Source: Solicoccozyma terricola (lineage: Eukaryota; Basidiomycota; Tremellomycetes; Filobasidiales; Piskurozymaceae). From it: a DNA stretch of 64,000 nucleotides. The notes below the pieces were generated by a model that saw only the letters and a list, made by a program, of their open reading frames with translations, was not told the DNA's origin and did not search any database. The stretch covers positions 492,162-556,161 of the forward strand of contig BCLD01000001.1 in the NCBI GenBank assembly GCA_001600875.1, written 5' to 3'. The stretch's first letter is position 1; every line of letters starts with the position of its first letter. Position numbers and translations under genes: made by a program. Below are positions 56,727-63,009 of the stretch, one piece after another.

Positions 56727-58433
56727 ATGGTGGCTCCACATTATGATTTTCTCATGAAGATGTTGTTGATCGGGGATTCGGGTGAGTGGAGAGAGCGAGA
56801 GAGCGAGAGAGCGAGCGAACGAGCGCAAAGGACATGGTCTCTTGCGAGCATAACGAGCAATCATACTCTTCCTGAGCGTAGCGACTGTGCAGCGAGCATT
56901 CGCTCCTTGAGCGTCAGCGAAGGACATTGTCTCTCGCGAGCGTAGGGGGCAGCAATCATACTTTTCCTTACCGCCAGTGAAGAAAACCTTCTCTCGCAAG
57001 CCCAGGGAGCATGATTCTCTTCCCGCGTGCACAGCAAGCAATGTCCCTCCGAACCAGATGACTACCCGTCGATAAAGTCAACGGAATCGTCTCTTGTTTC
57101 CAAGACGATTCAAGGGTGATTGGTATGATGAGTCGAGGAATAGTGCTTTCATTATCATCATTACGACGGGTGTTTGAACGATCCCGGTGTTACGATACTA
57201 CAGAGTGGTAGTGAACTGATGACAACTCTTGATCACCGACACATTCCACCTCCACCCACCCATCTTCACTGACATTCCCAATTCCCTTTCACGACCGTCA
57301 CCATTCACCCTCAATCGGGACAACCAGGCGTTGGTAAATCATGTCTCCTTCTTCGGTTCTGCGACGATGCTTGGACTCCAAGTTTCATCACTACTATCGG
57401 TGAGCTACCTTTTGTTCGTCTGGGTTCTGCAGATAGGAGGAAGGAAAGGCTGATGGTTCCCGCGCTGGGGTTTATTAGGTATTGATTTGTACGTTGGAGA
57501 TCGAGTCGTAGAGATTTATCCTCCACCTGTTTAGATTTACTCATTACGTGGGGGGTTTCTTTTTCCTGGGCGTTTTCGCGTTTACAGCAAGATCCGAACG
57601 ATCGAATTGGATGGGAAGAAGATCAAGCTCCAGATCGTGAGTCCTCTCTTCCTCGCGTACCAATCCTCGCACCCCTGCCACAAGTACACTGATTCTGTTT
57701 GAAATGTGTGGTCGGGGTGTAGTGGGATACAGCAGGACAGGAACGATTCAGAACCATCACTACTGCTTATTATCGTGGTGCGATGGGGATTTTGATGATT
57801 TATGACGTGACCGATGAGAAGAGTTTCCAAAGTGAGTTTACTTTTACCCGTCGTTTGATAACCCTGTTCGAAATTTTCGTTTCCTATTCATCCGGGAGGT
57901 TATGATGGGAAATTGATCCTCCCATTTTTTTTTTCCCCCTTTGGTTGCCTGTTTTCCTTTTCGCTGCCCGATTTCAATCCTCCAAAGACATCAAAATCTG
58001 GCACTCTGCAGTCGAACAACACGCGTCAGAAGGCGTCAACAAGATCCTCATTGGTAATAAATGCGATTGGGATGAGAAACGTTCAGTCTCGCTTGAAGAT
58101 GGACGAAGGTTGGCTGATGAGCTCGGAGTGAGGTTTTTGGAAACGTCCGCGAAAGCGAATGAGGGTGTTGAAGAGGCGTTTTTCACATTGGCAAGGTGCG
58201 TTTCCCCCGTCCTCCCTGCCTGAAACGTGACAGGTCGGTCTAAAACGGAAGCGCTGATCGTTGATGGCGTTGGCTTGGCGGAATCGCATCGCAGAGACAT
58301 CAAGACTCGGTTGATCGATTCTCAACCTGATCCAGCGTCCAATCCTCAAGCTCAAGCTGCTCTCGGTGCTAGATCTGGTGGCGTCAAGGTCGGAGCTGGA
58401 CAGGGGAATACTAATTCGGGTGGTTGTTGTTGA
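56727..58433 (+). CDS. SEC4: Rab GTPase, Sec4/Rab8 type
   Basis: Rab GTPase of exocytosis (Sec4; called Sav1 in Cryptococcus). G1 [17 protein letters not shown] is split by intron 1 after the first base of the Gly codon. The effector/switch region is FITTIGIDFKIRTIEL, G3 [21 protein letters not shown]4 GNKCDW, G5 ETSAKAN, and the C-terminus NSGGCC ends in a double-cysteine geranylgeranylation signal. GIDFKIRTIEL and [13 protein letters not shown] favour Sec4/Ypt2/Rab8 over other Rabs. About seven exons, every join in phase. Intron 1 (56782-57327, 546 nt) is far longer than the rest and holds a degenerate copy of the GAGCGTAGCGAGC-type hairpin repeats also found in the next two genes. Confidence 0.94.
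56786..57050 (+). repeat. Intronic hairpin-repeat cluster A (SEC4 intron 1, degenerate)
   Basis: Starts within four bases of the 5' splice site as GAGAGAGCGAGAGAGCGAG, followed by diverged units such as GAGCATAACGAGCAATCAT, GAGCGTAGCGACTGTGC, GCAGCGAGCATTCGC and GAGCGTCAGCGAAGG. Orientation matches the sense strand of the host gene. Less regular than clusters C and D. Confidence 0.6.
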
Positions 58434-58669
58434 AAGGTAGCAAACCGTCGCGAGCGTACATGCCAGGTCTTCTTCCCCACTTCTCTCCCTCTTTTTTCCC
58501 CGTTGGATCATTGTATAACAGGTTGACGGTCGATGATACTTTGGAATATCGTTTCTCAACCTCTTTTTCTCATCAAAATTCTGCCAGAGCATACATAGAT
58601 AGGAACCCCGAAAAAGATATAATCGCGACATGTCTGGTTATTTGGTTCTATAGCGCCCCTTCCACCATT

Positions 58670-61022: not shown

Positions 61023-61457
61023 TGTTCAAGATTGATATGTATGTATGACTGACGAATGGGGAGGGGTAGGGAGGGAAAGGGGGTAGATCGACACAGAACA
61101 AAGGAGAGAAATCGCAGTGGTCAGTTTGAGACGCAGCTAGGGATTGGTTAAAGAGATGGAAGATAACCTACGTAGTTGTAGTAGCTGGAGTTGTGCGATG
61201 AAGTAGAGATGGATTGCAGAGCGAGAGAGACAGAGGGGGGTTGAGCATGGAAAGTGTCTTCTACATCGCTGCGTTCTATTGCTTCTATCCGACAGAAATC
61301 GGAGCGTCGGACCGGTACCCCGAGTACCCCGAGTCACGTGAAAGTGACCCCCATTCCCTTCCCTTGGCAGTGTGTATTACATAATCTAATCACTCCCACA
61401 CCGTCTATTAGGTCAACGACGAGCTCATCCACCCACACACACCCACACCCACACACC
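61023..61457. promoter_or_regulatory. Divergent promoter dehydrogenase / ERF4
   Basis: 435-bp shared upstream region with TCACGTGA at 61334-61341 followed by AAGTGA, and a CACACCCA microsatellite near 61431-61456 just before the ERF4 start. Confidence 0.6.
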
Positions 61458-63009
61458 ATGCAACCTCGCCCTGTATCACCCACATCATCACTCGAGAAAG
61501 GTCAGCGCGGTAACGAACTGGTCGATTTCCTACGTGCGGGTCCACCAGAGGATCATTACAAGTCATCTCAATCACGTTCAAATGGGTGTGTGTTGGCGGT
61601 TTGACACACCGTCCTTATCCGTTTGTTTGGTATTCATATTGAGATGGAACCGTTCCTTTTTCTTTGTCCTTTATTTTTAACTTGGCATACAGAGCTCCAC
61701 ACTCATCGTATTCACTCTCCGCGATACCACATTCGTCTACGGCATTTGGGACGCCGCCCACGGGGATTATAGGAGTGCATTTGCCGAGGGAGGTCGTTAG
61801 GGTGGAGAGGGATTGGAGTGGAGGGGAGGTTTGTCAGTGAGTGGTGGTGGGACGCGGGCGAGCGTAGCGAGGAGTCACGGCGAACGTAGTGAGCATTCAT
61901 CGCGAGCGAAGCGAGCATTCATTTCTTCGCGGAGCGAAGACCTGCTCCCGTCAGGGAGCTCTCTTTCGCGAGCGCAGCGAGCACTGCTTTCTTTCTTCTT
62001 CGCGAACGTAGTGAGCATTCATCTCTTCGCGAGTGCAGCGAGCATTCATCTCTTCGCGCGAGCGCAGCGAGCACTGCTTCTTCTTTCTTCCGCGAGCGCA
62101 GCGAGCATTCATCTCTTCCTTCTTCGTGAGCGTAGCGACCACTGCTCCGCGTAGCGAAGATGATTGTCTTCCGCGAACGTAGAGAGCTACTCTTGGTCAG
62201 CGAGTGTAGCGAAGCCCATCCTTTTTTCCCTCGAGTATAGCAAACACTACCCTTCTCGGCGATTCTAGCTAGCAATCCACGACGAATGATGCTGATATCG
62301 GGGGTTCATTTTGTCCAGATTTCATGCAACGTATCCTATGGAATTAGAAGGTCGAGTAAGTTCCCCATTCCCTGACTCCCTCGACCCTTCCACCACCACC
62401 ACTAACCCTCGTTTCCCTCCATGTCCCTCTATGTGCACTTGTCTCGATTTTCCCACCCCATCCTCTCTCTCTGTCTGCTACGAAAATCCAGATCACTCCG
62501 ATACAATTTCAACACCTGATCAACGACTTGAACTCCCATCTCATCCTAGCTCATTCATTAAAGTCAGCAGCATGGGAGAATACATTCGGTGTATTGACAT
62601 GGGGAATAGCATGGTTGTTTTTCGAAGGAACGTTTGAGAAAGTGAGTCGTTGGCCGTTTGAGCAGAGTTTTGAAAGGAAAAATTCCTAATCGGAGGTGAA
62701 TATGCGACAACACTTTGTAGGAACTGAAAATAATCGAAAAGTTGATCGATGTCGCGAATAATGAATTGTGGCATGAACAAGGGTTGAATATCCTATCACC
62801 GAGGAAAGTCGGGTTGCAGTTCGTGAGTGGAGAAGTAGGTCGTGGAGAGGTCACAAAATTGCAGGAAGACTGAATGAGTGCGTTTGGTGCGGGTATGGGT
62901 GTGGTATGTCCACAGCTTGAGATCGAGTGAGTGTTTTGAAAAGTGGGAAGGAATGTTTTAGAAAATCGAATGTTGAATCCACAATCGTCGGGACAATAGG
63001 TATTTCTGA
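61458..63009 (+). CDS. ERF4: Erf4/GOLGA7-like subunit of Ras palmitoyltransferase
   Basis: Accessory subunit of the DHHC palmitoyltransferase Erf2 that lipidates Ras-type proteins (family knowledge). After a Ser/Pro-rich leader (MQPRPVSPTSSLEKGQRGNE) the Erf4 domain runs VVRVERDWSGGEVCQFHATY, PMELEGRITPIQFQHLINDL, FGVLTWGIAWLFFEGTFEKE, LKIIEKLIDVANNELWHEQG and LNILSPRKVGLQFLEIE, parallel to the GOLGA7 pattern (RDYSSG-CQF, PAELE-RI, YEKVLKK, GL). About 195 residues. The last exon can stop at 62930 (LEIE) or splice at GTGAGT to add YF and stop at 63009; I prefer the latter. Intron 2 (61837-62318, 482 nt) interrupts the codon after EVC and carries repeat cluster D. Confidence 0.85.
61855..62290 (+). 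repeat. Intronic hairpin-repeat cluster D (ERF4 intron 2)
   Basis: About twelve units of consensus CGCGARCGYAGYGAGCAYT spaced 22-35 nt, starting some 20 nt after the GTGAGT donor, in the sense of the host gene. Contains one GCTCCC-GTCA-GGGAGC hairpin (61944-61959) and a CTTCGC-GGA-GCGAAG hairpin (61925-61939). The regular core is 61860-62150; units decay toward the 3' end of the intron. Confidence 0.88.

What the first reader, a model, noticed from the sequence alone, without database searches (positions are those of the whole stretch)
56782..62318. One hairpin-repeat family fills four introns of three neighbouring genes, always in transcript sense
Introns SEC4-1 (546 nt), dehydrogenase-1 (603 nt), dehydrogenase-2 (434 nt) and ERF4-2 (482 nt) are several times longer than most others in the window (about 50-150 nt), and the extra length is arrays of one repeat family (core GAGCGTAGCGAGC). 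SEC4 and ERF4 are on plus, the dehydrogenase on minus, yet the repeat orientation always follows the host transcript, and each array starts within about 4-20 nt of the GTGAGT donor. I noticed no such arrays in the other introns I traced. This suggests an intron-borne element that spreads locally or is selected as RNA, comparable to introner-like elements but made of hairpin arrays. The splice assignments are by eye; the mechanism is inference.
Basis: partly seen in the sequence, partly recalled or inferred. Interest (0 to 1): 0.9.

Follow-up and report, generated by a model that had tools for sequence, protein, structure and literature searches.

The report
Splice-donor-anchored hairpin repeats in fungal introns
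In an unnamed relative of the Cryptococcus yeasts, one family of hairpin-forming DNA repeats sits inside introns of many unrelated genes, nearly always starting right after the splice donor and pointing the way the gene is read, an arrangement that may show how a repeat can spread from intron to intron.

Summary
Three are missing from transcript-sized public contigs of the same or a very near species; the fourth fits its homologues. Genome-wide there are 628 exact cores. In the 50 clusters that I could read, a gene model blind to repeat direction favours the host's sense for 42, antisense for 5, neither for 3. Pfam on 43 host pieces: 20 sense, 3 antisense, 20 silent. GTGAGT lies within 25 nt upstream of a core 58 times; the three mirror arrangements give 1, 0 and 2. 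Array introns are 5'-proximal, arrays cluster locally and fade towards the acceptor.

The unit is one hairpin that the sense strand alone can form: GC-GA-GC-GNA-GC-GA-GC, with covarying variants; loops are mostly GNA or GNNA, the rule published for unusually stable DNA mini-hairpins.

Only the 5' part of the introns is related, so these are not introners as defined. RNA-level selection is poorly supported: tetraloop GTYA 66, GTRA 3; no folding beyond shuffles; little wobble preference; but sense RNA does fold better than antisense. Best reading: a selfish hairpin repeat copied between introns with the donor as anchor. The copying step is inferred.

The parts
56782..57327 (+). SEC4 intron 1 (546 nt), carrier of a degenerate array
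   Evidence: P-loop GDSG|VGKSC restored by splicing; contig protein P0122 on 924 nt
56789..57011 (+). Degenerate sense array in SEC4 intron 1, beginning about 7 nt after the donor with an 8-nt run
   Evidence: tandem repeat 56789-56823; repeat family D3 copies 56838-57011; cores only with 2 mismatches
59887..60320 (-). Dehydrogenase intron 2 (434 nt)
   Evidence: gene model; absent from the 1,367-nt contig of P0001
60109..60316 (-). Sense array in dehydrogenase intron 2
   Evidence: repeat family D2 copies; cores at 60253 and 60295
60395..60997 (-). Dehydrogenase intron 1 (603 nt)
   Evidence: gene model; absent from the contig of P0001
60593..60989 (-). Sense array in dehydrogenase intron 1, with two GCTCCC-GTYA-GGGAGC hairpins (C1:553000, C1:553092)
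   Evidence: cores 60681-60989; repeat family D13; tetraloop hairpins
61837..62318 (+). ERF4 intron 2 (482 nt)
   Evidence: EVCQ|F junction continuous in Kwoniella homologue P0241
61857..62192 (+). Sense array in ERF4 intron 2, with one GTYA tetraloop hairpin (C1:554105)
   Evidence: cores 61860-62187; tandem repeats of period 22-34
56727..58433 (+). Host gene SEC4/ypt2 Rab GTPase coding span
   Evidence: 77-82% over the full length to Rab proteins of named Tremellomycetes
58670..61022 (-). Host gene 2-hydroxyacid dehydrogenase coding span
   Evidence: PF02826 6e-45; P0001
61458..62930 (+). Host gene ERF4 coding span
   Evidence: 16 of 18 homologues carry PF10256, several named ERF4

Best explanation
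A dispersed, selfish hairpin repeat that colonises existing introns from their splice donor. Shown here: one repeat family starts next to the donor, faces the host transcript with few exceptions, is missing from transcript-sized contigs for the three introns where this could be checked, is most alike between introns in their first 40-200 nt and fades towards the acceptor, and on the sense strand alone can be drawn as a series of hairpins with GNA or GNNA loops. Inferred: the hairpins act as single-stranded DNA on the non-template strand, exposed by transcription or replication near gene starts. When synthesis stalls there and switches template, the conserved word GTGAGTG at donors is the short homology at which copying enters another intron. 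Entry at a directional word would set both orientation and starting point, while exit at any later match leaves the 3' end free. Tandem growth then lengthens arrays. Selection removes copies from exons; introns tolerate them because they are spliced out.
For: Donor word genome-wide: GTGAGT within 25 nt upstream of a core 58, against 1 (reverse complement upstream), 0 (downstream), 2 (reverse complement downstream); median gap 10 nt within that 25-nt limit. Orientation 42 sense, 5 antisense, 3 neither of 50 clusters; 0 of 43 multi-site clusters mixed; tetraloop hairpins agree with the nearest known core in 41 of 42 cases, 24 more having no listed core within 600 nt. Array introns use GTGAGTG in 15 of 35 against 42 of 398 others, p = 4.5e-6. 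The 5' ends are alike, the 3' ends not; donor to first site median 15 nt, last site to acceptor 167 nt, 27 introns; shared 11-mers peak at 0.43 at 80-120 nt from the donor and drop to 0.02 at the acceptor. Local clustering 8 against 1.99. Hairpin covariation. DNA mini-hairpin loop rule (passages of PMC4686876).
Against: No insertion event was observed; no strain or sister species with an empty intron could be compared. No microhomology was shown at 3' ends. 20 of 35 array donors are not GTGAGTG. Three antisense arrays (MET6, Maf, 2OG oxygenase hosts) stand on the acceptor side of their introns, which a donor-only anchor does not predict unless other words can serve. One tetraloop hairpin (C18:445665) opposes the core beside it. 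Global folding with DNA parameters is not better than shuffles (sense z +1.01, 24 introns). The covariation rests on few subfamilies, so few independent events. The GTGAGTG enrichment could also come from units that begin inside the donor.
Confidence: 0.45

Rival explanations
1. Selected sense-only RNA or intron-enhancing elements: arrays raise expression or guide splicing from promoter-proximal introns, as intron-mediated enhancement signals do (recalled), so orientation and position are kept by selection.
For: Array introns lie near gene starts: median 275 nt from predicted start to donor, 26 of 35 are predicted intron 1 or 2; start within 1,200 nt in 29 of 41 against 62 of 184 other window introns, p = 1.8e-5. 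Sense orientation. Pairing positions covary. Sense RNA folds better than antisense in 20 of 24 introns, mean -70.4 against -62.8. G.T exceeds A.C at stem pairs in the unselected motif, 47 against 32.
Against: RNA folding of sense arrays equals dinucleotide shuffles, z 0.02 (24 introns); among unique 15-mers G.T 71 and A.C 66 in the listed pair types, the G.T excess being at one CpG-bearing pair, 33 to 16; tetraloop third base pyrimidine 66 to 3, not GNRA; degenerate arrays such as that of SEC4 persist.
Confidence: 0.2
2. RNA-mediated copying: spliced introns or pre-mRNA are reverse transcribed and the cDNA converts other introns at their 5' ends.
For: Explains transcript sense without DNA strand arguments; reverse transcriptase domains are present, 16 matches of which 13 exceed the cut-off.
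Against: No full-length intron copies among 32 compared; local clustering is not expected from a diffusible cDNA; intron loss and poly(A) were not examined.
Confidence: 0.15
3. Introner-like element: each array intron is itself a mobile intron that created a new intron on insertion.
For: Many introns in unrelated genes share sequence that begins at the donor; [quoted passage not shown]
Against: Last 80 nt of 32 array introns unrelated (6 short matches, all between introns with C-runs), first 80 nt related (447); predicted lengths 116-1,556 nt; no discrete 3' end.
Confidence: 0.08
4. Independent local minisatellite growth from each intron's own donor, without transfer between introns.
For: Core GCGAGC resembles the donor GTGAGT; local tandem growth is visible.
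Against: Unlinked introns share the same hairpin modules and matches up to 452 nt at 73%.
Confidence: 0.04

Closest known systems
Introners and introner-like elements (Micromonas, Dothideomycetes, many eukaryotes)
   Same: Repeated sequence in introns of many unrelated genes, starting at the splice donor
   Different: There whole introns are near-identical copies (passages of PMC4457414; PMC9860276); here only the 5' part is shared, the rest is unique, and arrays vary in length
Short palindromic repeats of Volvox carteri organelle genomes
   Same: Short hairpin repeats with 3-5 nt loops that proliferate in introns and intergenic DNA and are taken as selfish (passages of PMC2670323)
   Different: Organellar, in group I/II introns and intergenic DNA, A/T loops; no donor anchoring or transcript-sense rule in the passages I saw
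REPINs (bacteria)
   Same: Dispersed repeats treated as miniature mobile DNA (listing of PMC3116915); hairpins recalled
   Different: Bacterial; transposase partner and extragenic placement are recalled only; no such enzyme was sought here
Extraordinarily stable DNA mini-hairpins such as d(GCGAAGC)
   Same: GNA or GNNA loop on at least two G-C pairs (passage of PMC4686876), as in the units here
   Different: A chemical structure class studied in vitro, not a genomic repeat family

Membership tests
Introner / introner-like element | Near-identical copies in introns of unrelated genes | tested here: not met
   The 25 best matches between introns are 71-81% identical over at most 452 nt
Introner / introner-like element | Similarity at both ends of the intron | tested here: not met
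   447 matches among first 80 nt, 6 among last 80 nt of 32 introns
Introner / introner-like element | Insertion creates a new intron position | not testable with these tools
   No relative's genome is held; only proteins of relatives were found
Introner / introner-like element | Target-site duplications or terminal inverted repeats (some families) | not tested
   No discrete 3' boundary to test
DNA mini-hairpin (GNA/GNNA loop, at least two G-C pairs) | Loop GNA or GNNA | tested here: met
   GNA in 373 of 481 units, though units were picked by consensus forms that contain GNA; stems of 6 or more pairs found without a consensus have triloop GGA 21 times and tetraloop GTTA or GTCA 11 times among 90 raw hits that count some stems twice; GTYA 66 and GTRA 3 genome-wide
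DNA mini-hairpin (GNA/GNNA loop, at least two G-C pairs) | G-C pairs next to the loop | tested here: met
   Pair 6-10 C-G in 394 and pair 5-11 G-C in 343 of 481 units, A-T in 76
DNA mini-hairpin (GNA/GNNA loop, at least two G-C pairs) | Unusual thermal stability | not testable with these tools
   Needs melting curves; global DNA folding was not better than shuffles
Selfish palindromic repeats (Volvox type) | Hairpin units dispersed in non-coding DNA | tested here: met
   Of 166 exact cores in held regions, 146 in predicted introns, 19 outside predicted genes, 1 in a predicted exon
Selfish palindromic repeats (Volvox type) | Organellar home and A/T loops | tested here: inconclusive
   Loops differ (GNA) and hosts are nuclear genes; the organelle genome was not examined
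Helitron-derived element | Helitron protein present in the genome | tested here: inconclusive
   0 matches to PF14214, but the control genomes were silent too

The most novel reading that the evidence does not exclude
A new kind of eukaryotic selfish DNA: short mini-hairpins of the non-template strand that use the conserved splice donor as their entry address, so that the splicing code itself dictates where and in which direction a repeat can spread. It would lengthen introns without creating them.
Probability: 0.35. Interest if true: 0.9.

Novelty: new variant of a known kind. Interest (0 to 1): 0.72.

Why it matters
Why introns grow, and by what process, is an open question. Here is a family in which position, direction and a decay gradient can all be read from sequence, with a donor word beside the first core at 58 places of one small genome. 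If the donor-anchored copying model holds, splice sites act as landing marks for DNA repeats. I saw no such link in the titles and abstract starts that my ten searches listed; several listings were capped, and only open-licence papers are held. It also offers a natural setting to test whether very stable DNA mini-hairpins on the non-template strand drive repeat spread at transcribed gene starts.

Tried and rejected
Rfam at gathering thresholds: no match in the window. Folding: no excess over shuffles on either strand or with either energy set, tested on the first 24 of 32 introns, 200 nt each; I had expected one. A Watson-Crick-only reading of the core failed; the tandem G.A reading came from the variants. 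A prokaryotic or viral source: a 25-nt pattern of the second hairpin has 0 exact matches in genome contigs and in viral contigs. Helitron: nothing found, control silent, so undecided. My note that the G.A positions show no conservation excess was too flat: in the main subfamily they mismatch in 3-5% of copies against 5-12% at the outer pairs and 15-20% at positions 6-7, but in the second subfamily they do not stand out, 4-10%. The rank and distance comparison with window introns is inflated, because my model fuses neighbouring genes there (ranks up to 33); the 1,200-nt test suffers from the same fusing on its window side. My first coding model was misled by open frames inside the arrays and was replaced by one that scores arrays equally on both strands. 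Backward-pattern controls are not independent here, since the core read backwards is part of the repeat: they gave 313 against 303 for the A variant, and 1, 25, 13 and 9 for the four donor patterns. The 2,572 to 1 same-strand matches were made after turning every array to its own sense, so they show only that arrays are not internally mixed. In one search I compared 43 of the 66 tetraloop hairpins and found 33 of 33 in agreement; with all 66 and the donor-linked cores it is 41 of 42.

Literature: ten searches. I read passages of PMC4457414, PMC9860276, PMC2670323 and PMC4686876; everything else was seen as a listing only.
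Full report
What was checked. The window lies at C1:492162-556161 of a 23.9-Mb, 33-contig genome. Its dehydrogenase is closest, among named proteins, to Cryptococcus, Kwoniella and other Tremellales (62-69%), so this is an unnamed relative of them; the species is not identified. 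Splicing was tested through proteins. The dehydrogenase protein joined across both array introns matches P0001 (332 of 333 residues) on a contig of 1,367 nt although the gene spans 2,353 nt, and SEC4 joined across its array intron matches P0122 (201 of 202 residues) on a contig of 924 nt. The simplest source of such contigs is spliced RNA; this is an inference from length, since the contigs themselves were not seen, and an intronless DNA copy in a near strain is not excluded. For ERF4 no transcript turned up, and the junction rests on the alignment with a Kwoniella homologue.

Genome-wide count. Exact cores GAGCGNAGCGAGC number 152 (T), 303 (A), 135 (C) and 38 (G), 628 in all. Listings are cut at about 100 places, so the set is complete only from C1 to C6:966600. 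There 77 clusters were formed, 43 with more than one site, and none of the 43 mixes strands. Over all listed sites, opposite-strand neighbours closer than 3 kb are divergent 11 times and convergent never; one convergent pair lies 3.26 kb apart. At least one of the 11 (C6:965687 and C6:966561) is not a pair of divergent genes, because its plus-strand member is antisense in a minus-strand gene.

Host genes. I could hold 41 merged regions, 197,682 bases, covering 50 clusters. A gene finder trained on these regions, with array bases scored equally on both strands so that repeat direction cannot steer it, was asked for each cluster whether a sense or an antisense intron fits better. Result: 42 sense, 5 antisense, 3 neither; a few of the 42 are weak (1.2 to 1.7), and for two of them (the dehydrogenase pair and C2:699698) no single intron holds the whole cluster. 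Pfam was then asked about 43 exon or protein pieces of host genes: 23 had a match at the thresholds used, 20 on the array's strand and 3 opposite. Five of the 20 are below Pfam's curated cut-off (Filament, polyprenyl_synt, Pkinase, bZIP_1, TIMELESS), and so is Maf among the three. The three opposite ones are methionine synthase, Maf and a 2OG oxygenase; in all three the array reaches to the acceptor side. The other two antisense calls, at C2:1207540 and C6:907476, are weak (-3.7, -4.8) and have a GTGAGT on the array strand just upstream; I leave them open. Of the three undecided, one lies beside a ubiquitin-conjugating enzyme exon on the array strand, one next to what looks by eye like ATG3 (Pfam gave nothing), and one is a single core in a predicted exon.

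Donor anchoring. GTGAGT within 25 nt upstream of a core occurs 58 times genome-wide. The same word reversed and complemented occurs once upstream and twice downstream, and the word itself downstream never. These are words, not proven donors; the gap is 10 nt in the median, within the 25-nt limit of the search. Array introns more often have the donor GTGAGTG than other predicted introns, 15 of 35 against 42 of 398. They are 5'-proximal: a predicted start lies within 1,200 nt in 29 of 41 against 62 of 184. My gene models miss small first exons and fuse neighbours, so these positions are approximate.

Polarity. First site to donor is 15 nt in the median, last site to acceptor 167 nt (27 introns, p = 1.7e-5). 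Units at the 3' edge are more decayed than at the 5' edge in 16 introns, less in 7, equal in 4 (p = 0.022), and mismatch rises with position in 24 of 33 (p = 0.011). Without reference to a consensus, the share of 11-mers found in at least two other array introns is 0.21 in the first 40 nt from the donor, 0.43 at 80-120 nt, and 0.02 at the acceptor. Only the 5' parts of the introns are related: 447 matches among first 80 nt, 6 among last 80 nt of 32 introns.

Structure. The core with its flanks reads GC GA GC GNA GC GA GC. Fixing only the two GA pairs and the GNA loop, 290 places occur in sense and 42 in antisense of 46 array introns. The four other pairs match far above column shuffles: 240 against 186.5 +- 4.8, 246 against 189.2 +- 4.9, 267 against 183.4 +- 5.7 and 259 against 252.2 +- 1.3. 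Inner pair G-C changes to A-T (46 fully paired sites in 22 introns) and outer GC/GC to CT/AG (26 sites in 11 introns). In the CT/AG form the G.A positions are replaced by Watson-Crick TC/GA about half the time, 34 against 33. These are few events copied many times, so shuffles overstate the evidence. The reverse strand would need T.C pairs and a TNC loop and cannot form this hairpin, which gives orientation a possible physical meaning. Loops are GNA in 373 of 481 units, picked by consensus forms that contain GNA. The second hairpin, GCTCCC-GTNA-GGGAGC, has a pyrimidine at the third loop place 66 times and a purine 3 times genome-wide. GNA or GNNA loops on two or more G-C pairs are the published rule for extraordinarily stable DNA mini-hairpins, with a Tm of 78 C for GCGAAGC (passage of PMC4686876).

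DNA or RNA. An RNA selected for stability would be expected to show GNRA loops and G.U tolerance (established knowledge). GNRA is not seen. Wobble is mixed: in the unselected motif G.T exceeds A.C at stem pairs 47 to 32; among unique units the listed types give 71 to 66, with the excess at one CpG-bearing pair, 33 to 16. Sense RNA folds better than antisense in 20 of 24 introns (mean -70.4 against -62.8), yet neither differs from dinucleotide shuffles (z 0.02 and -0.09), and DNA folding is above its shuffles. So nothing shows that the arrays as a whole are optimised to fold, and the DNA reading leans on loop type and strand asymmetry.

Reading. The data favour a DNA repeat that spreads between existing introns and enters at the donor. 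Shown: placement, direction, gradient, relatedness limited to the 5' part, clustering (8 close pairs against 1.99 under uniform placement, none of 5,000 simulations above 8), and absence from transcript-sized contigs for three introns. Inferred: that single-stranded sense DNA hairpins and short homology at GTGAGTG drive the copying. A function as an expression or splicing element in early introns is the main rival. RNA-mediated copying is possible, since reverse transcriptase domains exist in this genome. Introners as defined are unlikely. Whether relatives share the family could not be tested: no relative's genome is held, and an exact 25-nt search in prokaryote and viral contigs found nothing.

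Noticed in passing
window 57479-57488: A 10-nt exon (GTATTGATTT) in SEC4 between two introns; the contig protein P0122 reads TTIGIDFKIRT across it, so it is really spliced in.
   Followed up: partly
window 40747-40801 and 55492-55546: Two 55-nt G runs (96% and 88% matches), and C-runs before the acceptors of several array introns elsewhere; possibly linked to the G-rich starts of some arrays.
   Followed up: no
L038 (C1:645442-645582), L046 (C1:1443109-1443653), L095 (C6:966351-966772): The three antisense arrays with Pfam support all reach the acceptor side of their introns and read into the intron from its 3' end, as if exon borders at either side can serve as a start.
   Followed up: partly
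C1, C2, C5, C6, C10, C14 of G000: Eleven strand-divergent pairs of arrays lie within 3 kb and no convergent pair does (listed sites); most may flank shared promoters, but at least one (C6:965687/966561) does not.
   Followed up: partly
C2:1210410: A single exact core in the predicted sense of a long predicted exon, the only exonic one among 166 exact cores in held regions.
   Followed up: no
C9:950873-951038 and C15:754415-754584: Three GTYA tetraloop hairpins each at about 75-79-nt spacing with no listed exact core within 600 nt (the A-variant core listing ends at C6). Perhaps arrays made mainly of the second hairpin.
   Followed up: no
C18:445593-445680: A minus-strand tetraloop hairpin lies beside a plus-strand donor-linked core, the only disagreement among 42 comparable hairpins.
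   Followed up: no
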